The notes beneath the pieces are model-generated. The model was not told where the DNA came from. It worked only from the letters and a program-made list of their open reading frames with translations, and did not search any database. This document shows, piece after piece, positions 10,901-40,629 of a stretch of DNA of 64,000 bases. Source of the stretch: Eumeta japonica (taxonomy: Eukaryota; Arthropoda; Insecta; Lepidoptera; Psychidae); NCBI GenBank assembly GCA_005406025.1, contig BGZK01000293.1:1-64000 (forward strand). The letters are read 5' to 3'. The translations under genes were made by a program, and so were the position numbers. How positions within the stretch are numbered: the first letter of the stretch is position 1; each line of letters starts with the position of its first letter.

Positions 10901-11885
10901 GGGTGTTTTTTTTGTATAAAAAGTTTGTATAAAAAACATTCGTCTCTTATTGTAAAACAAATTAAGGGAATAAAATTCTATAGCCAGAAACAAATCATCA
11001 AGAATTTCAATCTATGTGTTGTAGATTTCCCTTTGGTTGTATTTAATTTTCAATTTGTTTATTTGAATATTATCTACATTTTTATAATAAAAAGTAAAAT
11101 TATATAGATGTAGTATTAGTGCATTTTTTGAATAAGGTAAAAGTTTTTTTTATGATTTTTAACTTGTTATTGCTTCAGTGGAGCATATCTATACTTGTAG
11201 TATTTGTAGTACATGTAGTACAAGAAAAGAGAACCTCATAGGACAAGAGTTCTCTCTTTATTATTTGGCAATGAAATCTTAAACATGAGTCCATAAATTA
11301 CAATTATAAATAAATATGTAATAGTGTGGTACACTTTTTTTTTGAGAAATCACAGTGAAATTAAGCAACCAATATAATATTTATAAATAAGGAGCTATAT
11401 TGATATGTGCTATATTTTTACATTTTGTTATAAGTTTTATTATGACTTTATACTAAGCCTATTTATCAGTAGATTAGAATTATAATTAGCCCAATATTTA
11501 CAGAGTTCATCATGCCACACAAGATCGTGAAAGTCGACAGAGCACTTTAAACTTTCAATACAAATTTGTCTGTACTTGCGAAGCATGTGTTGATAATTGG
11601 CCAACTTATCATAACTTGGGAGCAGCTAAGAATCTTCCAAAGCTTATTGCAGAGAAGAAGAAGAAGATCTTAAGTCCGAATGCCATAGAGAAGCTAGAGA
11701 GGGGTTGTAAAGATATAGCAATGGCATTGTATAAACCTTTGTGTGAACTAATAACAGTTCTTGACAATTATGCTCCATGCGTTGAGTTAGCTGATTGTCA
11801 GGAGTCATTGAAGCAGTGTTTAGGTATTTATGAAGGTTTTCTACCTTTTGGTTTTACTAAAGTTATTGATTGGGATGTTTCTTAA
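7934..11885 (+). CDS. SMYD4: SMYD4-like SET and MYND domain lysine methyltransferase, frame-broken
   Basis: Exon 1 is 7934..9338 and exon 2 is 11504..11885, split by a GT-AG intron exactly inside the SET motif DNYG|VHH. The joined product is about 595 residues. Order of parts: N-terminal TPR-like helices (about 65-135), SET-N (about 180-215, DQMGHHVVAKRDIEVGE), MYND zinc finger with its Cys series from C229 (CSYC) to C268 (YHEYEC), SET core LLNHSCSPNV, then a post-SET zinc motif CTCEAC and C-terminal helices. The frame shifts once, near 8774-8777. Upstream reads in one frame to CPISATLIALKFTK, then continues in another as IGTLALRTVIKA; one extra A in the AAA run would restore continuity. All else looks intact, so this is either a recent disabling indel or a sequence error. 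The C-terminus (after ESLKQCLG) may run into the intron of an unrecognised further exon. SMYD4 acts as a cytosolic/nuclear methyltransferase in animals. Confidence 0.87.
9339..11503 (+). other. intron of the SMYD4-like gene
   Basis: A 2.2-kb AT-rich intron with donor gtaagaa and acceptor atatttacag. The tract at about 9500-9850 is pyrimidine-rich with little else recognisable. No nested gene was found. Confidence 0.8.
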
Positions 11886-22438: not shown

Positions 22439-23785
22439 TTATCCATAAAGTGTTGCATTTGTCATAGAATAATACTGTTGTCTGACGATGGTCTCGTTTA
22501 ATAATGTGATCCGGTTTGTTACTTTCGGTTCTACGGGATCGTGCTTTTTCAGATATTCCCTTACACAAGTCACTTCGTTATAAGGTAGAACTGTAGAGGG
22601 CAAGTTCTGGAACATCGCGAAGCCGATGCCGCCGTTGAATAAAAAACTAGGCATTATCACTTTGTATGTATTATTGTATTCTATTTGGAAAAAGTTTGGT
22701 TCATTGCACTGTTCGCACCTCGCTTGGGCTTGAACCAGGCGCTCACCTGGTGGTCGTGCAAGGTCATAAACAACTTTCAGTCCTGAAACTTGTAAGAGTT
22801 CTCCGGTCGGACTCACAGGTCGCCAAGTTGATATCGAATGTTCTAAAGCTTGTTGAAGTATTGCGCCATTCATCGTTACTATCCTTAAAGTGCTGGTGAA
22901 TGGGAGAACAGTGACCAGATCCCCTCGCCTTATTGAAGGTCCCGCTATGGAAGTTCTAATCCTGCCACTATGTAATATCGCTATGGGAGCGTCGGTCCAA
23001 AATTGGCCTTTATACTGATCCGCGTAATGTTCTACAATGGAATCTGTAATCAGGTTTCCCATGTTGCATTCGTTTAGTCGACACGAGCCATTTAGGACCA
23101 CCGATGTATTTCCAATCATTTCATTGAGCAAGCGGTTTATTTTTGTACCGTAAAATTCAACAAGATTCAAGACATCCGTGTCTTGTGGTATATTACGATC
23201 TAAAAGTATAGGCGCTCCGTTCACTTCAGTGATTTCCCCATTTTTATCGATCCTTAAATGTAGTTTCCCCAAATATTTGGTAAAAGCGTAAACTTGAACA
23301 ACGGGCACACCTTTCCCCGAAGGCTGATAAACAGTCGTAGGGTATGGGCCTTGTGGCGACTCGCTGTCCGGAGCTGTGCCGTTCCAAAGGAAAGTGTTCG
23401 AGTGTCCTCCAATAACTAGATCTATTCCCACGACGCGACGTGCAATTTCAAGATCTTTCAAATAACCGGAATGGCCGAGAGCTATTAAAATGTTTACGTC
23501 TTGTGCTTGAAGTTTGTCAACTTCTTCCTGAATCGAAACGATTTCGTCTTTGTATTCGACATTGTTTTTCGACGACATCAGCTTAGTGTCAGGCGTCAAA
23601 TAGCCTATGATTCCGATTTTTGCCCCGTTTTTTTCTACGACCACGGACTTCTTTAAATTTGACACATTTAAGAGTTCAGGTTCCTTATCGATAATAATGT
23701 TCGCCGCCAGAACCGGCGTTGATATATTTCTGAGGAACGGAGTGAGTCCAGATATTTCTTCGTCGAATTCGTGATTACCGAGAGA
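22439..23785 (-). CDS. 5'-nucleotidase/apyrase alternative terminal exon D (no GPI signal)
   Basis: One uninterrupted terminal exon of 448 codons. The acceptor tttgatttcag precedes 23,785, and the coding part opens in phase 0 with SLGNHEFDEE. With the shared head it would give about 572 residues, close to the 574 of human CD73. Metal and dyad residues are kept: GNHEFD, GHSGYLKD, GGHSNTFLWNG. The disulfide pattern CRLNEC is also kept. The substrate pocket is altered: the usual GGGIR reads SGRIR, and GGDGF reads GGIGF, so the aspartate equal to CD73 D506 is gone; the LPF phenylalanine (F417) and the F500 equivalent remain. It ends in a polar NATLYG with no hydrophobic tail, so the product should be secreted rather than GPI-anchored. 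Furthest tail from the head, about 15.4 kb from exon 2. Lacks its own signal peptide and first metal motifs. Confidence 0.92.
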   Translation of the reverse strand, partial: SLGNHEFDEEISGLTPFLRNISTPVLAANIIIDKEPELLNVSNLKKSVVVEKNGAKIGIIGYLTPDTKLMSSKNNVEYKDEIVSIQEEVDKLQAQDVNILIALGHSGYLKDLEIARRVVGIDLVIGGHSNTFLWNGTAPDSESPQGPYPTTVYQPSGKGVPVVQVYAFTKYLGKLHLRIDKNGEITEVNGAPILLDRNIPQDTDVLNLVEFYGTKINRLLNEMIGNTSVVLNGSCRLNECNMGNLITDSIVEHYADQYKGQFWTDAPIAILHSGRIRTSIAGPSIRRGDLVTVLPFTSTLRIVTMNGAILQQALEHSISTWRPVSPTGELLQVSGLKVVYDLARPPGERLVQAQARCEQCNEPNFFQIEYNNTYKVIMPSFLFNGGIGFAMFQNLPSTVLPYNEVTCVREYLKKHDPVEPKVTNRITLLNETIVRQQYYSMTNATLYG

Positions 23786-25377
23786 CTGAAATCAAACCAT
23801 TAAAAAAAATTAGGTGTTTTTTTCATATTACAGAAGAGGACACGAATGTTTTAGTATTTACGCTATATTAATAGAATATGTGTGATATAAGCAGATGCTG
23901 TATGTTTAGGTTATTAAAATAACAACAAATGTCTACAATTATATACATATGTTATATACATATTAAAATACATGGTCGTGATTAAAAAACAGAATTCAGC
24001 ACTTGGCGTGTTTGTGTACTAGTGTGCAATATGTGCTTCAATTTCATACCAAGACCTACGATTTTGATAATGCTTACGGCCTACTTTTGAGTTTTAACAA
24101 AAAAATCTATAGATTAGTTTTAAATTGTGAATTAATTTTAAAAATGGGTTTAAAAAGAGAGGTAGTGTTGGAAGAAACCTTTAACGTGATTACTCTCATA
24201 CTGTTTAGAAAATGATCTATGTGTGACATTAATAAAACATCTGTCGACATATACGTCAAAGCTTAATAAAGTATTTATCATCAACTTTATTTAATTACAT
24301 GAACCCCGCGTTCTATATTGTAATAAAATTACTAGACCTTGCGGGTTGGTTAGATGCGGCGTGCACACGACGTAGCGGTCGTGCGGATTCCTATTTTCAG
24401 TGTTAAATTAAACTTATAAATGATGGAGGTAGAGTTCCGGTAGCTGTCATTTTTTTTATTGGAAATTTATTCGTCTTTCAGAATCTTGTTCATAAATTTC
24501 GTAATTAGCAATAGTTACTGAATTATTACCGAAAAACTAAATATCTGTATTTTTTTTCCCATCTTATTTTGTTAATAACTTTGCAATTTTTGAAGTCATG
24601 AAAAAATGACGAGAGTGAATTTTTATCGGGGTGACACGAAAATTTCAATATGAAGTTGCTCGCAAGCGACTTAGTGAGCAACTTCACACCATTCATACTC
24701 GTATTTGCAGGCCAAAACGTTTACGGTCGCGATTCCGTCGACGTTAAAGTTTATCTGACATAACAACCTCTGAGCACTCGGTAACACGCCCACATTCGTT
24801 CCCGTTAATGTTTCACCGGAAATGTGGCGGATTGAGGGTTCGACGGAAACTTTAGCGAATAACGTAATGTTTCAAATCTTATTTACCCATATTCAGCATG
24901 TTGATAAGTTATGATTTTATTTGACAATTATAAAGTTAAATTTTAAAGTCACAATAAACAAATTTATAAGATTTTTTCTCCTTCTTGTTGTTACGAATAA
25001 TGATGAAAGATTTCATCAATTGAATATATAAACGTAAAATATTTTACTGCTGTTCACCTTTACTACGAGTTTCGTTACTATTATTTTCTTTGTCTGCTAT
25101 CGTAATTGCGTCTGAATTTGTTTCATGCATTATTTCGTTTTTATTTTCACTTTATTATATTACATCACTTCCAATATTAATTAGTGTATGTAATTCAATA
25201 TCTATCTGTATATTTATTTATATGGTATTGTAAACTTTATTAAGAGGTGTGAGTCATAATTTCCTATAACGTAGGTATAGTAGAACGCACAAAACTCTGT
25301 CGCTGCGAAATTAGTCACGAAAACGTTGCAATGACCTAAAATTGGCACGTGGGGGAGAAGAAAGAAGGGTCGTGGAC
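23786..25377 (-). other. intergenic/intron sequence between tails C and D, part 1
   Basis: Searched on the minus strand for the head motifs LHNNDMHA and NAGDTY; none found. Contains a hairpin gaagttgctc/gagcaacttc (about 24,651-24,685) and a phrase inverted from about 4,010. Otherwise AT-rich. Confidence 0.6.
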
Positions 25378-26540
25378 ATTGATCTATAAAAAAGAGGAGG
25401 TGCACAGTCTCGCGCTCAAAAACAGCCGCGGTAAATGAGTGCTAAAACAGACAGTTTAGCACTCATCGCGTTTGGTGTAGTTTCGTCGTACCTTCCGTTA
25501 TGAGATCGAAGTGTTCTGTTAAAAATGCAAACATGCCACGTAAAAAGCTATGAAAAAGGATGGTATTTCTTATTTACGATAAGCAAAATTTAGTTTATTC
25601 ACAATAGTTGCTTAATTACGTATTATAATGTGTATTCGATGATTATTTTATATTTGTTCATTTAAAGTAGCATCAAAAACCGAGATGTATCTCGGTTTTT
25701 GATGCTGATGATTTCCTTTAAAATAGACCTAATCAATACTGGTCTCGTATTTTTGCGTTATCACATTATTCGGTTGCTTAACAATAGAGACTCTGTTGTT
25801 ATACTAATGGAGTCGCCTTTTTTATTCATTCATTTATTATTTATTTTATATTTATACAAGTCATAAAATTATAGATAACAAAAAACTAAAAGGAAATCAT
25901 ATAATAGATTAAACCTATTTCAAAAATAATTATGTTTATGAAATTTCAATTTGTTTTTTAGAAAATTATATAAAAGTATTATCTTTATCAAAAATATGTT
26001 AATGTTTAATTAACCGTCATCTTACTTTATTATATAAATAATAAGAAAATTTTATATTACTGTAATTTAAACACTAGAAATTATCAAGTTCTTTTACATA
26101 TATTTTCCCCGATATTATGAAATTGAAATTTCATATTAATTTTAATCTTAGGTGATTACTAAATTAAGCTTTATTATGAAGAAAAATATACTTTATTTCT
26201 TTTCATGCATTCAACCAAGAAACAAAAATAAAAAATTAAAATAATATTAATCCACTCGACTGATCTCTTGTTTTAAAACAGCACGTGTAAATTGTAAAAA
26301 ATATGACCTATTGTCTTCCAATAACAAAATGATCGTTGCTTGTTTTTTTTGATTTAAAAATCAACCTTAGGTTATGACATTTCGGTTGTAATGTCAGATG
26401 ATAAATAATGTTCCTTCCTTTCCTTTTCTTTGGCACTGCAAAATAGTTTCATAAATGTGAAACAGAGACAAAATGTACACTGAGCCATTTTTCGCCATCC
26501 AAATAGTACGCAACTGTGCATCTTTTCTTTTTTATACATG
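25378..26540 (+). repeat. about 1.15-kb dispersed repeat, copy 2
   Basis: Second copy of the 20,390-21,570 repeat, same orientation. It keeps the left-edge ctataaaaaagag, the hairpin gagtgctaaa...tttagcactc, and the right part with gccatccaaatagtacgcaa. Small indels and substitutions separate the copies. Confidence 0.75.
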
Positions 26541-26960
26541 TATGCTGTCGGTGAGTGTAGTTGAATGAAAAATGGAAGATGGCAACAAAATAACGTTAAT
26601 GTATTCCAACTTTTTACTTAATAATTGCTATAATTTCAAATAAAAAGATGAACTCGGTATTACATTTTCTATAAGCAAGTAAATATTAATTAGTTGAATT
26701 TTAAAATTCAAATTGAAGTTAACGACCATATTGACTGACCACTCCAATATTTTTATTATTTTATTGTAATTGATTATTTTCGAGCAATTACAAAAGTTTT
26801 TGTAATTATTTTAAAGCAGTACCTATAACTTCTCACGCGCGTACATATATGTAAAGGCACGATGTTTTTTTGGGTGCTGTAAAACCATTTTAATGCATTT
26901 TTCTAGACGTCATTTTGAATTCAATGAATTATCGCCCATATTTTTGGAAGTTTTATCAAG
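26541..26960 (-). repeat. inverted copy of the 3.2-4.0 kb repeat
   Basis: Contains gagtgtagttgaatgaaaaa and cttctcacgcgcgtacat, the reverse complements of phrases at about 3,810-3,835 and 3,380-3,400. It directly follows copy 2 of the 1.15-kb repeat. Confidence 0.55.
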
Positions 26961-28347
26961 AATTAACATCGATTTGAACTTTTGAAGAATGCCTAATCGG
27001 GTATGAATGAATGAATCATACCATGACAGTTTATTATATCGGTAGAATCAAAAGAGAACTAGGCATATACAAATGACATTAAAGCTACCATAGCCAAATC
27101 AGCAACATCGTAAATGTTTTAACTTATGACTTGGTATCTGCACAATTAGTGCTAAAAATAAAAATTTGAAGTTTTGAAAAATGGGCCAAAAATCGAAAAA
27201 CTGCTAGGTTTTAATTAATCTAGCAGTATACTTGCTACACTTATGTCTTAAACACTGAAATCAGCTCAGTATAACACGGAGATTAGATAGGTACTTACAA
27301 TTTAGTGCTATCTATACAACAGAGGAAATTATTAAATTTTTTTCTATACACACAAAACCGTAATACGTAATTGACATCTGAACGTTTTAAAATTTTAGCT
27401 TTTTGTTTTGTTTTTGCGTACTGAGCACTGCTAATACGATAGTCATACAAATAATACGGTGAAAAATGGACATCTAGTCTGGAAATCAATGAATTACAAA
27501 AGGAAAGTTAAGTAATGCTCAATTTGTTCTGCCTATTCCTAGAAGAAGTTAAGGAAAAAAAGGTTTAATTTTTTGGAACGAAGTTTCTTATTTTACTTAA
27601 AAACCTAGCAGTCTATGGGTAGAGAAAAGCATATCTGATTTAATAATCGCTAAATTATAGCGGGTAATTATTTATTGCGTAATTAGTGCTATCAGTACAT
27701 ATAAAACTTGAGTGAAAAAAAATTATTTTCATATATTACTTACCGTCTTATATTTGGTCTTCAAATTAGGTACTAATTTTCTAAATTAGCTTTTGTAGAT
27801 AAATCACACGTTTAAAAGGATGAATAAAGATAAAATAATACAGAGTTAAAAGTATTTCAAGATTTAATTTCCTTCGTTTCTATCAAAAGAATATTAATAA
27901 ATAAATAAATTACACAGACTTATTGTATAGAATAATAGGAACTAAATTTTACATCACTGAATGTCACATTCGTAATAATTACATATAATACTGGTAGAGA
28001 TTATATTAATTAAAGTTGTTGCGTTGTAAAACTTTAAATATAACATGAGTATTAATATTAATTACATCAAAATAGTGTGCCTAAATTGAATTCATATCTA
28101 CAGAAAAAAAATCACAGAAGTGAACAATTGTTCTCGCACAGTTGGTCGTCACGAAGGGAATAGAAGTTTTTATATGCTTGTAATTATCACAAAAAATTGA
28201 CTTGACACACTATTTTTCTAACATCACAAATTGTTGTATAAAATGTCTTTTTAATACTTATCTTTTAATGTCTTTATAATACGAATCCTTAAATACTTAT
28301 GTTCACGTTTTTTTTTTGTCAAGAAAAAAGAAATTAAATAGATCTTT
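26961..28347 (-). other. intron/intergenic sequence upstream of tail D and 3' flank of tail C
   Basis: AT-rich; no head exon and no other exon found. The part just below 28,348 is presumably the 3' untranslated region of tail C and has ATTAAA-type words (complement tttaat) near 28,250-28,275. Confidence 0.5.
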
Positions 28348-29754
28348 TTAGAGAAACGTTCCGTATAAAGCTATACAAAGTAGAGCTACTGTAAATGTAC
28401 TAATAGAAAGTAACTTGTTAGACGCCGCGTCTGTCAGAGGTTTCGATGGCTCCTTTGTGAAAGTTATTCTTCCTTCTGTTTCCGGATGTATGGGATTGTG
28501 TTTATTAATGTAATACATTGTACTAGCTAATTCGTTAAAACTCAAGTCTTCTCTTGGTAGGTCTTCGAGCATCGAAAATCCATCTCCGCCGGCTGCCACG
28601 AAACCAGGCATCAACACTTTGTATTTCCGCTTTGGTGTCACCGGATGATATTCTAAATTTTCGCAGGAACACAATGCCGTCGCTCTAATTACTCTTGATC
28701 CAGTCGGCTTGTTGAGATCGTATACTACTTTTATACCAGAAAATTGCAAGAATTCCCCTGGTGGTTCTATTGAAAAATAATCTGATACAGAATGTTCAAG
28801 CATTTCTATAAGAAACGTGCCGTTCATAATTACCGCGGCTATGTTCCCATCAAATGGCAAGACGGTCAATAGTTCTCCTTTTGTCACCGGCGCAGGTAAT
28901 TTATGCGGCACTATAGAAGATCTAATCCCTCCTCCTTGAATTATTGCTATAGGTGCGTCCGTCCAATATTCTCCATCGTACTGCGAGGCATAATATTCAA
29001 CCATTGCATCAGCTATCAAGTTACCTAAACCGCACTCAGATCTGTGACATAAGCGACCGTCAAGGGGAACAGACGTACTACCTACAATTTGGTCAGCTTC
29101 TTTCGCAACGTCTTTCCGATAACGTTCCACTATTTCCAATAATTCTTGATCTTGAGGTACAGTCTTGTCCAGAAGAATGGGATGACCATCGTATTTTACG
29201 ATTTCGCCGAACTTATCAAATGTTAAATGCAATTTCCCCAGATATTTCGTGTAGGCGTATGCTTGAACGACAAGTACCGTACGACCGGAAGCTTGAGTCA
29301 CTACGGTTGGATATGAACCTTCTGACTTTTCAGAATCCGGACTAGTACCGTTCCAGAGAAAGGTGTTAGTATGTCCTCCAATGACCAGATCTATACCTTC
29401 CACCTTCTGAGCAATTTCCAAGTCTTTTATAATTCCCGAGTGACCTAATGCTATTAAGATGTTTATTCCGTTTTTTCGCAGTTTGGCTACTTCCTCTTTA
29501 AGGGCTGTTATTTCGTCTTCGTATTCAACATCATTTTTAGTCGCTAATATTTTAGTTTCCGGAGTCAAATAACCTATAACACCGATCTGGAAGTCGTTCA
29601 TGTGGAAAACCTCGGATTTTCTGAGGTTCGATTCGTTTTGTAACTCGGGTACTTTGTTTAAAATGAGATTAGAGGCTAGCACGGGGCATGTTAAATTTGT
29701 AATGAACGGCGCTAAGCCATGCACTCCGTTGTCAAACTCATGATTTCCCAGAGA
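28348..29754 (-). CDS. 5'-nucleotidase/apyrase alternative terminal exon C (GPI-type, intact core)
   Basis: One terminal exon of 468 codons after acceptor cttgtttcag, opening in phase 0 with SLGNHEFDNG. Joined to the head it gives about 592 residues. Catalytic set present: GNHEFD, GHSGIIKD, GGHTNTFLWNG, IIQGGGIRSS, LPFDGN and AAGGDGF. The cysteines CHRSEC are conserved, but the residue after the first cysteine is His where CD73 has Arg354. The C-terminus has small residues (TDAASN) followed by a hydrophobic stretch to the end (ISTFTVALLCIALYGTFL), typical of a GPI-attachment signal. Expected to hydrolyse extracellular nucleoside mono- or polyphosphates at the cell surface; the exact substrate cannot be told. 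It has no own signal peptide or first metal motifs, so it needs a 5' exon from elsewhere; the only one seen is at 39.2-40.6 kb. Confidence 0.93.
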   Translation of the reverse strand, partial: SLGNHEFDNGVHGLAPFITNLTCPVLASNLILNKVPELQNESNLRKSEVFHMNDFQIGVIGYLTPETKILATKNDVEYEDEITALKEEVAKLRKNGINILIALGHSGIIKDLEIAQKVEGIDLVIGGHTNTFLWNGTSPDSEKSEGSYPTVVTQASGRTVLVVQAYAYTKYLGKLHLTFDKFGEIVKYDGHPILLDKTVPQDQELLEIVERYRKDVAKEADQIVGSTSVPLDGRLCHRSECGLGNLIADAMVEYYASQYDGEYWTDAPIAIIQGGGIRSSIVPHKLPAPVTKGELLTVLPFDGNIAAVIMNGTFLIEMLEHSVSDYFSIEPPGEFLQFSGIKVVYDLNKPTGSRVIRATALCSCENLEYHPVTPKRKYKVLMPGFVAAGGDGFSMLEDLPREDLSFNELASTMYYINKHNPIHPETEGRITFTKEPSKPLTDAASNKLLSISTFTVALLCIALYGTFL

Positions 29755-31100
29755 CTGAAACAAGAAAAAAAAAACGTTATTATCCATTCGTTGAATTTCA
29801 ACTGCATCGCCCATACAAACAAATAATGATTATGCACATGAGGCAAATTCCAAGCAATGGCTTAATAAAATAAGTACACGAACGTAATGAATAACGGGTC
29901 ACAACATGCAACGTCGACGCTTTGTGAATTACTCATAAACTTTCACCGAACATAAATATGATCAGGTGTGCAGCGATGTAAGCATATTATGATAAATATT
30001 ATCGTATAGTGAAATGAAAGTATTACATTCAATTAGGACAGAATTTACGTACATGGCTTTGGATTGATGACATTTCATTCCATCGAAAACGAGTGTATGA
30101 GATTGACCTATTCTTGTTGATTTTAGGCCTCTCATCTCGGTCGCTCCATATTCTTATGACATTCATTTTATATGGTAATCATAATATTAGCTATGGTAAG
30201 GGTAAAAACATTGGAAGGCGTGACTTACAATCAATCGCCGAGCGTATTCCACTTCAAAATACAAGATGGAGTCATTTGTTTTTGTAATGTAAAGAAAGTA
30301 TAGTGCGCTACGTGCGACATCAATTTATAATAAAGTAACGAAGTGCAAAATAGAAAGTTGTTTGTCGGGCTAATAATTGAAATAACAAGTTAACTATTTT
30401 GTATTTTTTTATTATATTCGACAATATATTGCATTATACAAACAACAGTACAAACTGTCTTCAAAATAATCCGCCGATATAAAAAAACGATTAAATTTAA
30501 TATGTAGGAAATATTTAGGGTTTCCTCTTTAAAAAGCTTCACTATTATGTTTTGCAATACTGAATAATACCTTAATTCGAATTGAAATACAAGTTATTGT
30601 TTTTGTATTTACCGAGAAATATAATTTCTCATTAAAAGTTTTTCGTGTTACGTAGATGAATAATATAATTATTATATGAAAGAAAATTATATTCAATAAA
30701 TAAAAGTAATACAAAATTGTAAAAGGAAAGGTTCACCTGGAAATAAATCTACAAATAATATTTGAATGACGATATGTGCCTTAAGTGTAATGTTTGTTTC
30801 AGATTTTTATTAATTTTCAGACAGTTGAAGAAAAAAAATCAATTTATTGAAAATAAATCCTAATAATTAATATTAACTGACATTGAACTATTGGACGCTT
30901 ACATTCTAAACATTATTTATTGTAAAAAAACGGTAATAAAATAACAACTAAACGAAAAGCAATCATAAATAACTCCGTATAAATAAAAATCAACTATAGA
31001 ATCAAATATAGAATGGATTATATAATCCATATTTTCTTAAATATTCATAATCTCCTTCCAAAGAAATCATTAAAGAAGCCATTTATAAAATAATAGTTTA
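29755..31100 (-). other. spacer upstream of tail C
   Basis: AT-rich; no nucleotidase head exon or other exon was found on either strand. Confidence 0.55.
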
Positions 31101-31330
31101 GAACGTCTTCGTAGAAATGTCGTGTCGACAACCTTAGAACAGCTGACGCGTAATTATCGTGCCGCAGTGGGGGATCTAGATGGCCAACAGCGTACGTGCT
31201 GCGCGGCCGGTCAGTGATTCGCTTCGCGCGACCGCGATTAGTTGCAAACTTGCACTGATAAGAGTTCGTCGTGTCGCACTGTGGCCAAACCGCGCCCGCG
31301 CTTGTAGTCTGGCCGAGCGTTTATTCGAGT
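31100..31330 (+). promoter_or_regulatory. G+C-rich island with Inr/DPE-like words
   Basis: A CpG-rich patch in AT-rich DNA between tails B and C. On the plus strand TCAGT (A at 31,213) is followed by AGTTG at the +28 position, matching the arthropod Inr and DPE consensus spacing. It could be a promoter, perhaps of a mobile element: 31,388-31,450 just beyond it is shared with 911-975. No function is shown. Confidence 0.3.
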
Positions 31331-31594
31331 TATGTCCATATCATTTTATTTTATTTATAAATATATTTTCAATGACATATTTCTGTTATAGTTACTTTGG
31401 CAAAGTTATTCTAAAAAAGAAGGAGATTATGAATATTTACGAAAAGATGCATGATCGATACTTTGATTACTTGAATGTTTTTGGGATATCAAACAAAAGA
31501 TTTTTTCTTATAGACATAATTTCGAAAATATGTGTTTCTTGAATTATTATGGAGATGTGGTATTTTCTACATATGTTCATAAAAAATTAATTAA
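31331..31594. other. spacer with shared repeat, 3' flank of tail B
   Basis: Contains the stretch also found at about 911-975. AATAAA complements occur near 31,353-31,372 on the minus strand and could serve tail B polyadenylation. Confidence 0.4.
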
Positions 31595-32980
31595 TCATAT
31601 CAAAAGCATGACTATTATAGCGAAAATGCAGGCGGACGATAACATCGGCGCACCAGATCCATTCGGTAGTTTATCACTGTTAAGTATCGTGATGCGATTT
31701 TCCAATGCGGGATAAACGGGACTGTGATTCTTTATATAATGCGAAGTGGCTTCTAATTCATTGTATTTCAGAGATTTAATCGGCAAACCGCCAAACATTG
31801 AGAAGCCGTCACCTGCCAATGATAAGAAGCTCGGCATTAACACGTTGTACTTTTGTGCCTTTGAAATTAGGGAGTACTTAGGTACGCCGCATGTACAACG
31901 GGCGGTAACTTTTACAACTCTCCTGCCTGGAGGCTTCGACAAATCGTACATAACTTTTAGTCCTGAAAATTGTAAGAACTGACCAGGCGGTCTCACTTTG
32001 TCGTATGAAGCCACAGCATGTTCTAACATTTGTAAAACAGTAGACCCGTTCATGCTAACCACCACTAAATTGCCATCAAACGGCATCACTGACAGTAGGT
32101 CGCCTCTGGTCACCGGCGATGGAGTGCTGAGATGAGCAACGGACGCTCTAATACCGCCACCTTGAAGGATGGCTATTGGTGCGTCTGTCCATGTATCACC
32201 CACATATTTCGAAGCGTATTCGTGAATCATAGCGTCCGTAATGAGATTTCCGAAGTTACATTCTTGTAAACGGCACGTGTGCCCGTCTAGGATGGTCTTG
32301 GCTGTACCCAAAACTTCGTTTGATATTCTTGTAACATTCTCCTGATATCTGTCTATGATCTTCAAAACTTGAGGGTCTTGTGGTATAGTTTTGTCGAGAA
32401 GAATAGGAAAGCCGTCGTAATCTATCAGTTCTCCGTTTGTGTCAAAGAGTAAATGAAGTTTACCTAAATATTTCGTATACGCGTAAGCCTGGACGGCAGG
32501 AACGATCCTGCCCGAAGCTTGCTTCACTAATGTAGGATACGGCCCTTCCGGTATTTCTATATCCGGAATCGTTCCGTTCCATAAAAAGGTATTAGTGTGT
32601 CCACCAATAACTAAATCTATATCTTCTACTTCCTTAGCAATTTGTAAATCTTTCGTAAATCCAGAATGACCTAAAGCTATTAAAATATTGATTCCTTCTT
32701 TTTTCAGTTTCTTGGCTTCCTCGCGGATAGCTTTGACTTCTTCGATGTATTGCACGTTGTTTTTTATTGCTAGAAATTGTGTATCAGGTGTCAAGTAACC
32801 GATTACGCCGATTTTGACACCGTTTATATCGAACACCACCGATTTTTTTAGGTTTGGTTCTTGCTGTAATTCTGGTTCGCCAGTGAGAATAAGGTTAGCG
32901 GCCAGCACTGGAGTGGTCACGTTTTCTATAAATGGTGTTAATCCAGAGACACCATTGTCGAATTCATGATTACCAAGCGA
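31595..32980 (-). CDS. 5'-nucleotidase/apyrase alternative terminal exon B (GPI-type, intact core)
   Basis: One terminal exon of 461 codons after acceptor aattttgtttcag, opening in phase 0 with SLGNHEFDNG. With the head, about 585 residues. By that numbering the dyad/metal residues are N128-H129, H229 (GHSG) and H252 (GGHTN); the 23-residue gap between the last two equals that of CD73. The other motifs are CRLQEC with the pocket Arg, ILQGGGIRAS, MPFDGN, and SFLSLAGDGF. The end has NGSGA followed by a hydrophobic stretch to the stop, a GPI-attachment signal. This is the most CD73-like of the four tails. Several N-x-T/S sites fit a secreted glycoprotein. Tail B and tail C look closest to each other by eye. 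Confidence 0.93.
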   Translation of the reverse strand, partial: SLGNHEFDNGVSGLTPFIENVTTPVLAANLILTGEPELQQEPNLKKSVVFDINGVKIGVIGYLTPDTQFLAIKNNVQYIEEVKAIREEAKKLKKEGINILIALGHSGFTKDLQIAKEVEDIDLVIGGHTNTFLWNGTIPDIEIPEGPYPTLVKQASGRIVPAVQAYAYTKYLGKLHLLFDTNGELIDYDGFPILLDKTIPQDPQVLKIIDRYQENVTRISNEVLGTAKTILDGHTCRLQECNFGNLITDAMIHEYASKYVGDTWTDAPIAILQGGGIRASVAHLSTPSPVTRGDLLSVMPFDGNLVVVSMNGSTVLQMLEHAVASYDKVRPPGQFLQFSGLKVMYDLSKPPGRRVVKVTARCTCGVPKYSLISKAQKYNVLMPSFLSLAGDGFSMFGGLPIKSLKYNELEATSHYIKNHSPVYPALENRITILNSDKLPNGSGAPMLSSACIFAIIVMLLI

Positions 32981-34850
32981 CTGAAACAAAATTAATAAGC
33001 GGTTATCGATATTTTTTTTCAATACTATGCTTCATGCATCACGTCTACATGCAAAATTATTTATACATTATGTTTTACAATGTTTTAATTGTAGCAGCAT
33101 AACGTGTCGATTCCTACATAAACCATATAACAGGTGAAAATGGTTTTCTTCAGTAGGTAGGTTACAGATAAATTGTATAATATGCGGTGAATATGCATTT
33201 ATGCGTGCACCCATACAGTTAAGCGAAAAAATTACAACTACAGTTAAGCGAAAATTTAATTACAACACTACATTAACAGGTTTGTTTAAGAAAACATTAA
33301 ATACAATGAATACCATGCACAATTTTCAAAATAAAATCTGTGTAAGAATTGCCAATAAAGTATTCATTCGATATTACTTCATGCATAGATAAATAATTGA
33401 ACTTACTTCCTTTATTTTTTTTTCCTTTCAATGAATATATTAACAACTATCGTAATTTGTCTGTATTATTTCACATTTTTGATATAATATAAAGTTATTG
33501 ACATAATCTACTTATAAGAAAGAGTTAGTCTATCAATGCAATATCAAAAATTCGATAAGTGAATTAACATTTATTAAATCACAATCAGGAAAAATAATTT
33601 AATATTCGAATGGATAGCATTGGAATATAAAGTCGTTTTTAGTCACTTGCTTGCAAAATAATGCGTTTTGCGTTTGTTCTCGCCAAAATTATGATATATT
33701 TCATTGTCTTGTCACCTCAGGCCTATCTTTACATCCTAATTCTCACATATTATAAAACACAACGTTGCTAAATCATAATTTAGCGGCAATACGTGTTTTC
33801 CGTGTAAAATGTGTTTCTTTTGTGTCTCTTTAGGGTCTCGCCAAATATCACGAATTTTTTTATTACAATAAACAATGCAAAAATCCGAGAAAAGTGAGTT
33901 AAATTAGGTAAAACATGTTTTTCCACTAAAATGTGCCTACAAACTACATAATAATATCTATCGAGCTATGAGCTTCTGTGTGCAAACAACAACGGTTTAG
34001 AGCGGCTAAATCAACGAGGCTGATAGAGCAGATGATTTTACTGAAAATCACATGGGCATGTTGATTCCAGTAGTCACTATTGAGTCTTAAACGCTGGTTT
34101 TTTTAGTGTTACAATAAAAATTAAGTAAAATTATTTTTTTTTTATTAATCCAACGCGATCAGGCACAGATAAAAGTGTTCACACAAAAAACAGGTATTTA
34201 AAAAAACTTACTTAAGATTGGGGGGGAGCTCATGCTAAATCTCACATCTCACGAAGGGAGAGGGCAGGTGAAAAATTGCGAAAATCGCCTCACGTAATTA
34301 ATGAATGGGCTTATTCTTAGATATTGCATCACTTTAGTAAACCAGGTCACTGGTCTAGTGTGCCACGGTGGTCGCTACGACGAGTCACCAATGCGATGAC
34401 GACGACACGTTTAACTTAACCTGGTTAACTTGCTCTACGAACGAGTTTTTACTCTGAAGAACTGCGTTTTTATTGTGTTTTAACAATTCGGTCAGTCAGT
34501 CAGAGTATTCTATTATATTATATGAAGAAATATGCCATATGAATATTTTTTAATTCACATCTGTTAAACTATTGTCATAAATAAAAGACGAGAATAGGAA
34601 ACCCGGCTGCGTACAGATCGAATAAAAAGCTAGAAATGCAAAATTATTAACATATTTACATTTTTTAATTGAAATTAACAATGGTTACACGTTATTTATA
34701 TTTAAAATTACAGCAGATGTCGGTCCCGATTACTTTCTTATGGATATAGAATTATATTTTTTAATGATATATTTTTTAGGATCATTTTAGTATTACCAAA
34801 TGTTTTTACGATAAATCATTCATATAAATAAATTTCTATATTAAAATAAT
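32981..34850 (-). other. spacer between tails A and B, part 1
   Basis: No copy of the head motifs was found. AT-rich with a more balanced patch at about 34,330-34,460 that shows nothing recognisable. Confidence 0.55.
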
Positions 34851-35150
34851 AACTTTTGCCCGCGGCTCCGCCTGCGTGGACATCAAATCTTTCATCATTT
34901 GTCTCGACCGGTCACTGTTAATCGTGATCCCGATATTGTTCCTGCTTTCGATTTCAGTCCTGGCTCCGTTTTTGATTCCAATTCTGGTCCCGATCTAGAT
35001 TTCGTTTCTTTTCAAAATGTACATAATTCGCCTGCGGTTTCGGCCGACCCGCACGATTCCAACCCCGAACCGATATTGAACTTGAATCTCTCTTGCACAT
35101 TGTTCTTACCAATAACTAATCGTCACGAGTAAAGGATTCGTTGTACGATC
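34851..35150 (+). repeat. degenerate GATCC/CCGGT block
   Basis: After a cccgcggctccgcctgcgtgg phrase common at repeat edges comes a run of loosely repeated words such as gatcccgat, gattccaattctggtc and gatctagat. Similar blocks are at about 650-750 and 46,110-46,330. The 77-codon frame here is a by-product of the periodicity. Confidence 0.5.
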
Positions 35151-35359
35151 ACGTTAGCAAAGTCGCGAGCAAAAGTTAGTGTCTTTATAAATTATAGCCT
35201 ATATGTTATTCTGATGACTAAACTATATTTACCGTATAGTTTCGGATAATTCTGTTCAGCCGTTAAAGCGTGATTGGATAACAAACATTCAAATATACAA
35301 ACTTTCACTTTCACAATATTAATAGGGTTAAATACTAAATTTGACAGACAATCAATGTA

Positions 35360-35440
35360 ATAGATTAAAACCTATTCACGCACACGCATGTACCCACGCA
35401 CGCCACCACGCACACACGCATACACACACACACAGAGAGA
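35360..35440. repeat. CA/CACG-rich simple repeat
   Basis: An imperfect run of acgcacacgca, cacaca and gagaga units. Confidence 0.85.
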
Positions 35441-36159
35441 GACATATATGCATACAATATTTATAATACGTACAAATAAAATGAAATTTCCGTCTCTTTT
35501 CCTGATTTAATAACAGTAACGGCTGAGCGAATTGTGAAGAAGTTTTATATATAGGTAAATTATTTCTTAGAATACAATACAGAATTGTTACAATAAAAAA
35601 ATGTGAATATCAGAAAAAATGTATAAACAGCACCAAAATTCAAAGGAGGACCAATTATTGTTCATATAAATTAGTATTTAACCTTTGAACACAGAAATAA
35701 GTTTTTCTGTTCCTAACTTTAAATTTTTCAGGGTTTTCGTATAGTCGTAAAATTACATCGAAATTTCAAACTACACAATTGTCTTTGAAAACGCTGAAAT
35801 ATTGTTTAACTAAGAATCAAATATAACTTTACATGTTTCTCGTCTAAGTGTTTCAGAATTTTCATAATAATTTCGCTCTAAATGCTGTTAAGAACTCATT
35901 TTGTGAAAACGCGTTATTTTTAAAGTCGAATCAAAAATTTTAATATCATGTTTGCATTGTATTTCTACTGTTTAAACTTTGAAGTCAATTCCTTAAAGGA
36001 ATGCTTTTACAAAAAATACTCTTTTAGGCAATTTTTATTTCGTGTAAAAATCTACTTGGCGATTTATGTTTAAAAGAAATATTACTGTGGTAGAGCAATG
36101 CTGTGATCAACTTAGCCAAGTTGACCGGCGCATTTTCGTGCTATGAAATATCAAACTCT
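35441..36159. other. AT-rich spacer
   Basis: Nothing recognisable; no nucleotidase head exon. Confidence 0.5.
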
Positions 36160-36425
36160 CACAGAATACAGACATAAAGTAACAGCCTCCGCTGGTCGTT
36201 TCGTTCAGTGAGTGAGAGTTTCGGTGGTCCACTCCCCATCCTCTTCCATCAGCCCATTGCCCTATACATCACCCTTTCCCCTGCGCCCAATTTTCTCTCC
36301 TCAGATATCCTTTTTCTATTTAAGCGTATGGCAACGCACTGGTGACTCATCTGGGGCAGCTGGTGTACATGGGCGGTGGTGACCACGTGCTTTTTGGTGG
36401 TTCGTATGTTCGTTTGCCTTTCGAT
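36160..36425 (+). repeat. lepidopteran dispersed repeat (copy 2 of 2)
   Basis: Contains agtgagtgagagtttcggtg, a C-rich middle with CCATCC-like words, then ggcaacgcactggtgactca and gtacatgggcggtggtgacc. It matches the minus strand of 15,090-15,440. Confidence 0.65.
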
Positions 36426-36738
36426 TTGCTATAAAAAAGCCATATAACTTCTGATGAGTGCTACGTGTTTACTATTTGGAACCAAATGGGATAAAATATT
36501 GTCATAATATTTGTATCAGGCTAAAAACAAGCATGAATTGCCAATTCAATTTGCTATCAAGTGTAATTTAAAAGTGTCTGTTGTTTTTAGGTTTAGAATA
36601 TAAAAATTAAAATGATCAATTAAATAACTTTAATAAAAATAATATACAAAATGTAGGTTTCGCGGCAAATATATAAATATATACCATTTTTGACACAATC
36701 AAATCTTACGTTACAAAATATAATTTTTTTTACAGTGT
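36426..36738 (-). other. 3' flank of tail A
   Basis: AT-rich; presumably tail A 3' untranslated region. ATTAAA-type word on the minus strand near 36,629. Confidence 0.45.
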
Positions 36739-38220
36739 CTAATTCACATGCATAATACAAAGAGCAAAGTGGATTGCTGTGATAGTTGCCACGATAAATG
36801 TAGATTGTAAACCAGTCGCAGAATCCGGTGTCGTACCGGTGTCGTCCATTGTGGTAGGAGCTGATGTGGTGATGGTGTCGTCGACAGTGGTGGTGGTGTC
36901 GGGGACGGTGATGTTGGTGTAATCGTCCAGGTAGTCGAGGTTTAAGAAAGTGATTCTTTCGGCTACTTCAGGGTATACAGGACTGCGACGCTCGATGTAA
37001 TCACGGAGACTTGTCACTTCATCATAGTTCTGTTCTTCGGCCGGCAGACCGACGAGCATAGAATACCCGTGCTCACCTTGAGCGAGAGCTCTGGGCATCA
37101 AGATTTTGTACGTGAACGAATTTTCTATTATGTAAAACTCCGGTACGTAGCACGACCAGCATCTTATCAATGACGATACAACTCTAGAACCTACGGGCAT
37201 ACTGAAATCGTAGACTACCCTTATTCCTGAAAATTGCAAAAACTGACCCGAGGGCGAGTGCAAAGCATAGTTCGCAACGGAATGTTCGAGGACCTGTTTC
37301 AGAATCACTCCGCTCATGGTCACCGCAACTACAACGCTCTCAGCTGGCAGAAGGTTTATTAAATCCTGCGCGTTAAGGGTCGAAGGTCGAGTAGTGATAG
37401 AAGAAGCGATTGCGGCACTTTGTATGATAGCCGCCGCCGCGTCTGTCCATCTGTCTCCTTCGAAATTAATGGCGTGATGATAGACCATAGCGTCCGTTAT
37501 TAAGTTACCGAGGTTGCATTCTTCGCTACCACAGCTATCTCCGTCCAGAACGACTAAGGTTTGGCCGATTATTTCGTTGGTTAAATCAATATTGTCAGTA
37601 TACAAGTTTATAATTTCAACTATTTCACTGTCCTGTGGCACAAATTCGTCTAAAAGAATAGGAGTGCTGTCGTATCCTATTATTTCACCATCGCTGTCAA
37701 AGACAACGTGTATTTTTCCTAGTTGGTGGGAATAAGTATGAGATTGTACCACAGTAACATTTCTTCCTGTCAACTGTCGTACAGTTACGGTTTCAACTTT
37801 TTCATTGAAATCTTGTCTGTTTTTTCCATTCCAAAAATATTTATTGCCAAAACCACCAATCACTAAATCGATGTCTTCTACTTCTCTAGCAATCTCCAGA
37901 TCTCTTTCATGCGACGAATGACCCAAAGCAATCAAAATGTCCACGTTTTTGGACTTCAATAGTTCCACTTCAGCTCTTAAAGCTATAATTTCATCGATGT
38001 ACTCAACATCGGAATGCGAGAACATTTTGCTGTCGGGATGGAGGTAACCGATAATACCAACTTTTACACCTTCAATGTCGAGTACAACCGATTTGTGGAT
38101 GTCAGCAGTTTTAATGTCATCGCTTAGGATCACGTTCGACGATAAAATGGGTGCATGAATATTTTCGATGAACGGTGATAGTTTTGATCCGCTGGGTTCG
38201 AATTCACTGTTCCCAAGACA
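36739..38220 (-). CDS. 5'-nucleotidase alternative terminal exon A, predicted catalytically dead (pseudoenzyme)
   Basis: One uninterrupted terminal exon of 493 codons; acceptor tgtttttccag, phase 0, opening CLGNSEFE. With the head, about 617 residues. Fold and length are kept, including cysteine pairs (CGSEEC, CWSC), but active-site positions have changed. In CD73 numbering: dyad H118 to S, D121 to E, metal ligand H243 to F (GGFGNK), R354 to G, R395 to A (QSAAIAS), F417 to A (LLPAES), F500 to A and D506 to H (LAQGEHGY). N117 and H220 remain. The C-terminus adds a Thr-rich, mucin-like stretch of about 35 residues (TTTTVDD, TTSAPTTMDDTGTT) before a hydrophobic end that looks like a GPI signal. 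No stop or frameshift occurs over nearly 1.5 kb, so the loss is not simple decay. It is the tail nearest the head, about 960 bp from exon 2. A surface binding or decoy role is inference. Confidence 0.9.
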   Translation of the reverse strand, partial: CLGNSEFEPSGSKLSPFIENIHAPILSSNVILSDDIKTADIHKSVVLDIEGVKVGIIGYLHPDSKMFSHSDVEYIDEIIALRAEVELLKSKNVDILIALGHSSHERDLEIAREVEDIDLVIGGFGNKYFWNGKNRQDFNEKVETVTVRQLTGRNVTVVQSHTYSHQLGKIHVVFDSDGEIIGYDSTPILLDEFVPQDSEIVEIINLYTDNIDLTNEIIGQTLVVLDGDSCGSEECNLGNLITDAMVYHHAINFEGDRWTDAAAAIIQSAAIASSITTRPSTLNAQDLINLLPAESVVVAVTMSGVILKQVLEHSVANYALHSPSGQFLQFSGIRVVYDFSMPVGSRVVSSLIRCWSCYVPEFYIIENSFTYKILMPRALAQGEHGYSMLVGLPAEEQNYDEVTSLRDYIERRSPVYPEVAERITFLNLDYLDDYTNITVPDTTTTVDDTITTSAPTTMDDTGTTPDSATGLQSTFIVATITAIHFALCIMHVN

Positions 38221-39182
38221 CTGGAAAAACAGGCAATTGAAGTTAGATATGGCAGACAATATGTATTTGTAAAGCAAAAAGTTAGTGATGCCTTAATAAG
38301 ATATTAAAAAAAGATAGACAAGAATTGCAAAAGAAATACCAGTAAACAATAGAGTCATGCGTTAGTTTATATACGTGCAGGACAAAATTGAATTATGTTA
38401 ATTGTATTGTACAACAGTGTTAGGGTGTAGGTTAGTTTCAAGCCATACAATTATAGTTAGTTGTTAGGGTGACATGCATTCCATTCTTAGATAAAATCTG
38501 AAACTTACGTATTTAAGTCATCGTGACTGTTTGTCTTTGAACAACATTTGATAAAGGCTTAGATTGTAAAATCATATTTAAACATGATTATGTTACTTCG
38601 AGTGCCGACTTTTCGCGAAGCGTGTTGTCCTTTGATAGTATCCTGGCGTTTATTTGGTACTGCATTCGTATCTCATCGGTGTGTATTTGTTACTGGAAAT
38701 TTTTTTCACGCCTTCTTATAATTCGTTTCAATCTTATAAAAGACGTTAGCGAATAGTATAATGATTAATAACCACCACAGAGTATTGGGGCTAAATAATA
38801 TATTTAAGATGTAACAGTTGTGTAGAATTCAAATTTCTTGATTTCGTAATATTGTCTATAAATGACCTAATTATATTTTATATTATTACACAGACATAAT
38901 AGATACGTATGTTTTATATTGACATAAAGAATGCATGTTCTAGGTTTTTTTTTTAAATCAATTTTATGGACTAGTAATTTTTTTGGGGTCGATTATGGAG
39001 TTGATGCCCAGGGCTCTAAAATTTAAAAGAGTTTTAGAGCCATCCTAAAATCAAATCTATTCTTATATAACGAAATTTAGTTACAAACGCATTCGAGATA
39101 AAAACACGTGCCGTCTCGATCGGGCTTAATTCTGAACTGTACGAGTCCGACATTTGGTCGGCGATCGTCGCGCGATAGTTAC
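38221..39182 (-). other. intron between shared exon 2 and tail A
   Basis: Donor gtaact at 39,182 and acceptor ttttccag before 38,220 give a 962-bp intron, the shortest of the four possible head-to-tail joins. Nothing else recognised. Confidence 0.75.
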
Positions 39183-40629
39183 CACGGCGTCCGGTCGTAG
39201 GGCGTTGATGAAGTCGGCGGCTATCCGCCATTTGTAGAGGGTGAACCAGGCGGTGCCGGTGTAGGTGTCGCCGGCGTTCAGGTACAGCACCGGGGGGCCG
39301 CCGGCCGCCGCCGCGGCTCTGTATTCCTTTACGCTGTAATAAAAAAAAAGATACGGATATCTCAAACACGGTGTAAATGCAATCGATCGTCGACTGATTT
39401 ATTTCTTTGAGCGAGATTTTGGTATTTTTTATATTTATTTGCATAATATAAAACATACGGTCTGAGAATTGTAAAAATAACACATGTATTATACTTTGGC
39501 ATACTTAGATATTTTCATAGAAAAACATAATTTTGGCAGTTAATTAATCTACTGTTGACTTATGCGTAGTGCACATGTATGGATTTTAGTATGTATAAGA
39601 GCAAAATTTCATTTGTTAGGCATGCGTTTCACAGGAGAAAATGTCCGATAAAACAATAGCGTCGGGCAGGGCGAGTTATTCGAATCGATCAAGGAAAATC
39701 GTCGTCATCGATTTTTTTTGGCGAATCACTAATTTGGCTTTTTCTTATTATTTGCTTGATCTACGTTATAGTAGGGACATATTGCTCTTAATTATTTTTT
39801 TCCATCCCAGACGCTCTGTGCTCTTTGAATTTCATCATCAGTATAGTATTATATTCATCCATTTCGGATGAATCCATCCGTACAATCGTAACATTTCATT
39901 TCTTTTAATACCTTAGTCTCTACATTTTCTTCTAAATCACAAAGTTTTTGACGTCACTATTCTCATACTTCTAATTCAAGTACTCTCCACACGTAATATT
40001 TAAGTTCACTGCTTTAAAATAATATTACCGATAACGCGATCATTAATATAATTGTTGCGTCAGGTTTTAAGCATCTTACTGTTGAGATGTAATCCTTCCA
40101 CAATTTTTTATTTCAGTTTGAGGGATTTGGATAGAAAGCCTTCCGCATTGGTCCAATGCGGACTGGGACAACACCAGCTGGTGAGAAGGCAGTCGGTGTT
40201 GCTTGGTATTAACGATTGATGTCACCATGTGATGACAAAAGTTGGAACCGATTGCTTTATCTATTCTCAGATACACAAATTTGATCCGATTAAAAACTAA
40301 ATGCTCAATTAGCCCGTGGACAGAATCGTACGGTAGTACACAAAACCGTGTCATCAGTTCATAGAATTATAGAGTCGCTGTTAAAATTAATAAATCTGGA
40401 AAACTTACACGTGAGCGACCCGCGGGAAGCCGCCGTAGCACTTGCCGGCGTCGCGGTCCTCGGTGGTGCACACGCCGCTCAGCTGCGAGGTCTGCTCGAA
40501 GTGCGCGTGCATGTCGTTGTTGTGAAGGATGACCAGCTCCAGGCCGGCGGCCGGCGGTTCTTGCACCACGGAGCCGCTGCTCAAGGCGCACATCAGCGCC
40601 ACCAGCGCTAGGTGTCTCTGCGTTAGCAT
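39183..40629 (-). CDS. shared 5' exons (head) of the 5'-nucleotidase/apyrase locus
   Basis: Exon 1 coding part is 40,629..40,409 (73 codons plus 2 nt, donor gtaagt). Exon 2 is 39,333..39,183 (151 nt, acceptor ttattacag, donor gtaact) and ends in phase 0 after RPDAV. Together 124 residues. The start has a hydrophobic signal peptide (about 1-20) and an AACC-ATG context. An upstream in-frame ATG at 40,728 exists without a stop between, but would hide the signal. Metal motifs are LHNNDMHAHFEQ (D39, H41) and NAGDTYTGT (D96), equal to CD73 D36, H38 and D85. Cysteines in CTTEDRDAGKC match the CD73 C51-C57 bridge. Exons 1 and 2 are markedly richer in G+C than the tails, with a run of five Ala in exon 2. 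The head cannot fold alone: it lacks the GNHEFD dyad and both later histidines, which each tail supplies or has lost. A minus-strand TATA-like word is near 40,706-40,715. Confidence 0.9.
39334..40408 (-). other. intron 1 of the nucleotidase locus
   Basis: About 1.07 kb with consensus borders. It contains a perfect 9-bp-arm hairpin, CCGCATTGG-T-CCAATGCGG (about 40,143-40,161), inside a more balanced patch that may be a repeat. Confidence 0.75.

What the first reader, a model, noticed from the sequence alone, without database searches (positions are those of the whole stretch)
22439..40629. One head, four tails: a 5'-nucleotidase locus with four tandem alternative terminal exons
Shared exons 1 and 2 (signal peptide, D-x-H and NAGD metal motifs) end in phase 0 after RPDAV. 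Four downstream exons on the same strand (starting at 38,220, 32,980, 29,754 and 23,785) each have a good acceptor, start in phase 0 at the identical protein position ([S/C]LGN), run uninterrupted for 448-493 codons and stop. I searched the gaps for further LHNNDMHA or NAGDTY exons and saw none. No tail can make a full nucleotidase alone. The simplest reading is duplication of the terminal exon only, with alternative splicing and polyadenylation producing four ectoenzymes from one promoter.
Basis: partly seen in the sequence, partly recalled or inferred. Interest (0 to 1): 0.88.

Follow-up and report, generated by a model that had tools for sequence, protein, structure and literature searches.

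The report
One gene head, four alternative tails
In an insect whose closest protein matches are butterflies and moths, the start of one gene is followed by four complete alternative gene ends that are likely joined to it one at a time by RNA splicing, predicted to give three nucleotide-cutting enzymes and one look-alike without a working cutting site, and matching kinds of ends occur across butterflies and moths.

Summary
Two shared exons (40629-40409, 39333-39183) encode 124 residues. Four single-exon tails follow on the same strand, each starting in phase 0 after CAG at the same residue. Head exons occur once in the window; the genome search found besides them only five distant paralogue exons (39-43% identity). 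The tails are saturated at silent sites and constrained as proteins. Database records of ten lepidopteran species carry several tails on one head, diverging from this residue. Trees and profiles recover four tail classes. T1, T2 and T4 join theirs in the tree; T3 matches its class best by profile but without tree support. The window tails do not form one clade (p-AU 1.6e-40). So this is one ecto-5'-nucleotidase gene with an old array of alternative terminal exons. 'Four ectoenzymes' needs correcting: T1 and eight T1-class relatives lack four substrate residues in 9 of 9, and the catalytic histidine in 8 of 9, so that isoform is a predicted pseudoenzyme. A fifth, T1-like tail lies without a head on another contig. 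No RNA of this species was available; splicing is inferred.

The parts
40409..40629 (-). Shared exon 1 (coding part): ATG, hydrophobic N-terminus, metal motif NDMH (D36/H38 of CD73)
   Evidence: translation and donor; one search aligned residues; only strong copy in the genome search
39183..39333 (-). Shared exon 2: metal motif NAGD (D85 of CD73), ends in phase 0 after RPDAV with donor GTG|gtaact
36739..38220 (-). Tail T1, 493 codons: predicted pseudoenzyme tail (GNSE, GGFGN, QSAAIA), hydrophobic C-terminus
   Evidence: T1 class 9 rows, support 100; best profile T1
31595..32980 (-). Tail T2, 461 codons: listed catalytic and substrate residues kept except N390 (Gln, as in 28 of 33 T2-T4 rows); hydrophobic C-terminus
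   Evidence: T2 class 10 rows, support 94; best profile T2
28348..29754 (-). Tail T3, 468 codons: catalytic residues kept, R354 position is His; hydrophobic C-terminus
   Evidence: best profile T3, 723 against 680 bits for T2; not placed in the class by the free trees, but a tree holding it there is 1.3 log units better
22439..23785 (-). Tail T4, 448 codons: catalytic residues kept, HSGRIR, D506 position is Ile; no hydrophobic C-terminus, so predicted secreted
   Evidence: T4 class 22 rows, support 92 and 99; profiles T3 and T4 tie, 639 and 638 bits
38221..38250 (-). 3' splice site of T1 (tttttccag)
32981..33010 (-). 3' splice site of T2 (ttgtttcag)
29755..29784 (-). 3' splice site of T3 (ttgtttcag)
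23786..23815 (-). 3' splice site of T4 (tgatttcag)

Best explanation
This is a single ecto-5'-nucleotidase (5NUC/CD73-family) gene whose two shared 5' exons are likely spliced, one at a time, to any of four tandem complete terminal exons, giving three predicted ecto-nucleotidases and one predicted catalytically dead isoform. The junction does not fall between domains. It cuts the metal-binding domain, so the head supplies three metal ligands (D36, H38, D85 in CD73 numbering), and each tail supplies the other three positions, the catalytic His/Asp pair, the substrate pocket and, in T1-T3, a hydrophobic end fit for a membrane anchor. Choosing a tail would therefore change activity, substrate pocket and anchoring without touching secretion. 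The choice is most likely a competition between the exon-2 donor, the four acceptors and the poly(A) sites of the tails (inferred; no RNA-pairing code was seen). The array probably arose by tandem duplication of one terminal exon that had no internal introns, before the window's lineage split from the other Lepidoptera sampled.
For: Anatomy and head. Of 12 PF02872 matches in the genome, long open tails are only the four window places and C2543. Junction: records of ten species carry two or more tail records on one head; in 20 of 31 within-species pairs the shared head has no mismatch, in 11 it has 1-5 (three with the H. armigera X5 record, two a Danaus start variant, six among four Bombyx records, of which one pair is the same tail); one more pair had no junction and was dropped. 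61 of 63 proteins without head motifs have Gln, as from CAG read through, just before the junction. Classes: 59-row tree, class profiles; all window tails as one clade rejected, p-AU 1.6e-40. Order: in 6 of 6 fused gene models the first tail is T3 class and the second T4 class, the window's order. Joined products: P0015 carries head plus T3-class tail, 590 aa, longest contig 1,863 nt; P0129 (Bombyx-type head) carries head plus T1-class tail. Selection: pS 0.74-0.84 against pN 0.24-0.40 in ten of ten pairs of T1-T4 and T1b. Signatures: R354 kept in 9 of 9 T2 and 16 of 16 T4 rows but 1 of 8 T3; GRIR in 14 of 16 T4 rows; T1 dead. Intron: five of five paralogue head exons stop one codon before a GT that fits a donor at this position.
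Against: No RNA-seq of this species was seen. The isoforms of other species are database gene models whose read support I did not see. Poly(A) hexamers are near chance; T4's acceptor is only fair. The free trees leave win_T3 outside its class (support 32 beside T1), though holding it there is not rejected (p-AU 0.56); win_T4 scores the same with the T3 and T4 profiles. A T1-class tail without a head on C2543 shows that a headless tail can persist; its contig ends 755 bases upstream, so its head may be unassembled.
Confidence: 0.87

Rival explanations
1. Four separate tandem genes, each with its own first exons that are too diverged or missing from the assembly.
For: Ordinary tandem gene duplication is common (general knowledge); other 5'-nucleotidase genes on C69, C242, C362 and C848 have their own heads.
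Against: No second head in the gap-free window. Head search of the whole genome gave seven matches: the two window exons and five paralogue exons on other contigs. Records of ten lepidopteran species carry several tails on one head.
Confidence: 0.05
2. Only one or two tails are used; the others are relic exons on the way to decay.
For: T1 has lost its active site, and win_T4 has lost D506 and has no hydrophobic end.
Against: The tails are open for 448-493 codons with protein-level constraint, T1/T1b included (dN 0.29, dS 3.3). Each class occurs in several lepidopteran families.
Confidence: 0.04
3. Tails are joined in series, so that one mRNA carries head, part of T3 and T4 (double-length proteins), as in six database models.
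For: Fused models of 890-1030 aa exist in six species.
Against: They leave the first tail at differing places (first tails of 322-430 residues), as gene predictors do. The window tails end in stop codons, and T1-T3 in hydrophobic ends.
Confidence: 0.04

Closest known systems
Lepidopteran protein 5NUC / 5NUC-like isoforms in RefSeq and related records (H. armigera, H. zea, Leguminivora, Danaus, Leptidea, Pieris, Bombyx, Plutella and others)
   Same: Same gene family, same kind of head, same junction residue, matching tail classes. The window gene looks like an orthologue.
   Different: Those are mostly automatic gene models; I saw no paper on the array in the listings (one search listed none). 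The window lineage adds a T1b tail and a T4 without a hydrophobic end.
Human CD73 and the ecto-5'-nucleotidase family
   Same: Head plus T2 matches CD73 chains over residues 16-563, E 2.7e-124; catalytic and substrate residues kept in T2 except N390, which is Gln.
   Different: No terminal-exon array is known to me for CD73 (recalled). T1-class tails lack the substrate site.
Insect GST genes with duplicated 3' exons (mosquito GstS; Anopheles GSTD1 splice variants)
   Same: One N-terminal part joined to alternative homologous terminal exons (passages of PMC9540044, for GstS; PMC1761136, only names splice variants of An. gambiae GSTS1 and GSTD1).
   Different: GST tails are smaller (recalled) and I know of no dead one; here the cut passes through a two-metal site and one tail is predicted dead.
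Lepidopteran serpin-1
   Same: A tandem exon chosen exclusively changes specificity: 14 isoforms in Manduca, 4 in Bombyx, 6 in Cydia (passages of PMC10671500).
   Different: The serpin exon is the ninth of ten, internal; here the whole terminal exon with its stop is swapped.

Membership tests
Ecto-5'-nucleotidase (CD73/5NUC) family | Full-length similarity of head plus tail, with the PF02872 part in the tails | tested here: met
   head+T2, query residues 16-563 on CD73, E 2.7e-124; PF02872 in all four tails; the PF00149 search of the genome did not complete
Ecto-5'-nucleotidase (CD73/5NUC) family | Metal ligands D36 H38 D85 N117 H220 H243 and catalytic H118/D121 (positions recalled) | tested here: met
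   kept in head+T2, head+T3, head+T4; not met in head+T1 (H118S, D121E, H243F)
Ecto-5'-nucleotidase (CD73/5NUC) family | AMP hydrolysis at the cell surface | not testable with these tools
   needs expression and assay
Alternative terminal exon array | One shared 5' part, several homologous in-phase 3' exons each with acceptor and stop | tested here: met
Alternative terminal exon array | Each terminal exon has its own poly(A) site | tested here: inconclusive
   hexamers present after each stop, above the shuffle mean only for T2
Alternative terminal exon array | Transcripts joining the head to each tail | not tested
   no RNA of this species held; other species only as gene models or unnamed contigs
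Pseudoenzyme (T1 class) | Catalytic and substrate residues lost while the chain is kept by selection | tested here: met
   R395, F417, F500, D506 in 0 of 9, H118 in 1 of 9; T1/T1b dN 0.29, dS 3.3; the model of P0129 matches CD73 over its length (TM 0.47-0.54 by query length, domain angle uncertain)
Pseudoenzyme (T1 class) | No measurable activity | not testable with these tools
   assay needed

The most novel reading that the evidence does not exclude
Splicing itself is the activity switch: the head-proximal T1 isoform is a conserved built-in inhibitor that pairs with the T2-T4 enzymes of the same gene, as CD73 subunits pair, so each splice choice both lowers enzyme output and poisons what is left, tuning extracellular adenosine throughout Lepidoptera.
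Probability: 0.2. Interest if true: 0.85.

Novelty: new variant of a known kind. Interest (0 to 1): 0.64.

Why it matters
A single gene appears to have kept, across Lepidoptera, a set of interchangeable enzyme parts with distinct active-site signatures, one of them predicted dead. It suggests how a large terminal exon without introns can act as a module for making an enzyme family without new promoters. It also gives a natural test of whether an inactive sister isoform controls extracellular AMP and adenosine. PMC3405022 reports an H. zea salivary apyrase of the 5'-nucleotidase family (passages seen). Annotation practice matters too: six of the gene models looked at here fuse two tails.

Tried and rejected
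Rejected: hidden heads between the tails; a recent local duplication; haplotype or assembly copies (tails 45-57% identical, no Ns). C2543 as a haplotig: its matches to the window are the T1 tail, the SMYD-like gene and four short stretches of 64-216 bases, not a collinear copy. RNA docking/selector pairing between the start of intron 2 and the stretches before the four acceptors (60 shuffles and 60 random stretches each): T1-T3 paired worse than their shuffles, T4 1.5 s.d. better; against random window stretches T1, T2 and T4 were worse and T3 0.2 s.d. better, so no code was seen. The head's high GC3 (0.887 against 0.37-0.45 in tails) at first suggested a foreign head, but five of five paralogue head exons are also GC3-rich (0.68-0.84). 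Naming the lineage through Lepidoptera-only families (PF07294, PF10793) failed: the genome search did not complete.

Rows dropped or not used: the trees used 39 tails of single records (37 named, P0015 and P0129 unnamed), 4 window tails, 12 halves of 6 fused models and 4 flies, chosen by me from the 214 proteins returned; T1b was added. In one search, three species had one record and one pair (Parnassius apollo) had no junction in P0005. Ten proteins over 350 aa without the junction motif were left out of the count. The 63 counted there include the fused Parnassius model P0005, a full-length Trichinella protein (P0093) and an Arctia gene model (P0064); the last two are the two without Gln. The active-site table has 45 rows: CD73, 2 flies, 9 T1, 9 T2, 8 T3, 16 T4; T1b is not in it. 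CD73 position numbers are recalled; the letters at them were checked. The three protein searches each scored about 8,000 candidates and listed the best 120. The paper searches listed 20 of 78, 20 of 37, 20 of 55, 12 of 60 and 12 of 35 papers and 0.
Full report
What is there. On the minus strand of the window two exons (40629-40409 and 39333-39183) encode 124 residues: a hydrophobic N-terminus, the NDMH motif and the NAGD motif, ending in phase 0 after RPDAV. Four single-exon tails follow on the same strand at 38220-36739 (T1), 32980-31595 (T2), 29754-28348 (T3) and 23785-22439 (T4). Each begins right after CAG with [S/C]LGN and runs 448-493 codons to a stop. The head occurs once in the window, which has no Ns. 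In the 702-Mb assembly the head finds its own two exons and five exons at 39-43% identity on C69 (two), C242, C362 and C848 (seven candidates, all scored). The PF02872 family search gave 12 matches in the genome; long open tails were only the four in the window and one on C2543.

Is it more than chance? The tails are 45-57% identical as proteins. Silent sites are saturated (pS 0.74-0.84) while replacement differences stay at pN 0.24-0.40 in ten of ten pairs of T1-T4 and T1b. That is purifying selection on the tails, the dead one included (T1 against T1b: dN 0.29, dS 3.3). Acceptors are good for T1-T3 and fair for T4. Poly(A) hexamers exceed the shuffle mean only after T2, so the separate 3' ends remain inferred.

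Is it spliced this way? No RNA of this species was available. Elsewhere, 5NUC records of ten lepidopteran species carry two or more tails on one head. In 20 of 31 within-species pairs the shared head is identical and in 11 it differs by 1-5 residues; one of the 31, in Bombyx, is two records of the same tail; one more pair lacked the junction and was dropped. The tails diverge from the residue used in the window, after a shared run of 0-14 residues in the other 30 pairs. P0015 (longest contig 1,863 nt) encodes a complete 590-aa head plus T3-class protein, and P0129 a 578-aa Bombyx-type head plus T1-class protein. As the head is split by an intron in the window, such contigs look like spliced RNA, an inference since their origin is not given. 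Among proteins without head motifs, 61 of 63 have Gln just before the junction, as expected when an open frame is read back through a CAG acceptor.

How old? A tree of 59 tails gives a T1 class (9 rows, support 100), a T2 class (10 rows, 94) and a T4 class (22 rows, 92), each with its window tail, and a T3 class of 13 rows (93) beside which win_T3 stands unresolved. Class profiles built without window rows agree for T1, T2 and T3: win_T3 scores 723 bits with T3, 680 with T2, 638 with T4 and 523 with T1. win_T4 ties between T3 (639) and T4 (638). Holding win_T3 in the T3 class gives a tree 1.3 log units better than the free one (p-AU 0.56). Holding the window's tails together as one clade, T1b included, is rejected with p-AU 1.6e-40 (60 rows). 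The tails therefore separated before the window lineage split from the others. In T1, T2 and T4 the window tail is sister to the sampled members of its class, Plutella included in T1 and T4 (in one search T1 together with T1b). This suggests an early-branching lepidopteran or near relative; the species was not identified. In 6 of 6 fused gene models the first tail is T3 class and the second T4 class, the window's order. Five of five paralogue head exons end one codon before a GT that fits a donor at the same place, so the intron is probably older than the array. Paralogue PF02872 matches lie in short open frames (54-165 aa), so the one-exon tail is probably derived and made exon duplication possible (inferred).

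What do the tails do? In CD73 numbering (positions recalled, letters checked) the head carries D36, H38 and D85; the tails carry N117, H118, D121, H220, H243 and the nucleotide pocket. All 33 T2-T4 rows keep N117, H118, D121, H220, H243, R395 and F500. F417 is kept in 32 of 33 (H. armigera X5 has Tyr) and D506 in 32 of 33 (win_T4 has Ile). N390 is kept in 0 of 33 and is Gln in 28, as in both flies. Classes differ near the substrate: R354 is Arg in 9 of 9 T2 and 16 of 16 T4 rows but in 1 of 8 T3 rows; the motif at R395 is GRIR in 14 of 16 T4 rows. T1 is different in kind: R354, R395, F417, F500 and D506 are kept in 0 of 9 rows, H118 in 1 of 9 (Plutella) and D121 in 3 of 9, while H220 is kept in 9 of 9, N117 in 7 of 9 and H243 in 4 of 9. 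T1 isoforms are thus predicted unable to bind or cut AMP, though the shared head still offers its half of the metal site. An AlphaFold2 model of P0129 (29-row alignment, mean pLDDT 80.6, pTM 0.58) matches CD73 chains over its length (Foldseek E about 1e-56, TM about 0.5, domain angle uncertain). T1, T2 and T3 end in hydrophobic stretches, as for a membrane anchor signal; T4 does not, so T4 is predicted secreted in this species.

Mechanism. Most likely the exon-2 donor is paired with one of four acceptors, in competition with cleavage after the earlier tails. No pairing code was found. The T1 tail lies first, so using it would be the shortest path.

Beyond the window. Contig C2543 has a fifth tail, T1b (SLGN at 756, stop at 2693, 645 aa, Thr-rich stretch, 61% identical to T1), with no head on the 50,000 of 50,967 bases searched. 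The same contig carries a copy of the window's SMYD-like gene (66.6% at DNA level) in the same relative orientation, so a block was probably duplicated long ago; T1 and T1b pair with support 99.

Known or new? Databases already hold isoform models. In the listings I saw of searches of open papers (capped lists of titles and abstract starts; one search listed none) I saw no paper on this array; this is not proof that none exists. The Bombyx Bm5'N paper (PMC8468349, one passage seen) concerns a 13-exon gene, so apparently another. Nearest kinds are GST genes with duplicated 3' exons (PMC9540044, passages) and serpin-1 (PMC10671500, passages). I rate it a new variant of a known kind: an alternative terminal-exon array that splits a metal active site and keeps one predicted dead tail.

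Noticed in passing
L016 (G000:C2543:1-10000), 756-2693: A fifth, T1-class tail without a head on the part of its contig searched: 645 aa, GNSD and AGYKN in place of GNHE and GGHxN (read by eye), Thr-rich mucin-like stretch before the end; 755 bases from the contig's left end.
   Followed up: partly
window 7919-11885 (+) and C2543:15936-17181: SET/MYND (SMYD-like, name from recalled motifs) gene in the window; a stretch 66.6% identical to 8097-9344 lies on C2543 in the same orientation relative to T1b, suggesting an old block duplication.
   Followed up: partly
window 39183-40629: Head exons have GC3 0.887 against 0.37-0.45 in the tails; five paralogue head exons elsewhere in the genome are also GC3-rich (0.68-0.84). 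Cause unknown.
   Followed up: partly
window about 41400-41650: Long inverted repeat (fold-back) inside LINE-like remnants upstream of exon 1 (read by eye; not measured).
   Followed up: no
window 55159-57391 (+): Open frames resembling a hAT/zinc-finger-type transposase (recalled resemblance translations).
   Followed up: no
P0019 (H. zea X4) and P0130 (H. armigera X5): Extra T2-like and T4-like tails in Helicoverpa without hydrophobic ends (by eye) and with His at position 245, as in the one mosquito row of the table (Anopheles nili, a 5NUC-like record): possible secreted apyrase-type isoforms.
   Followed up: no
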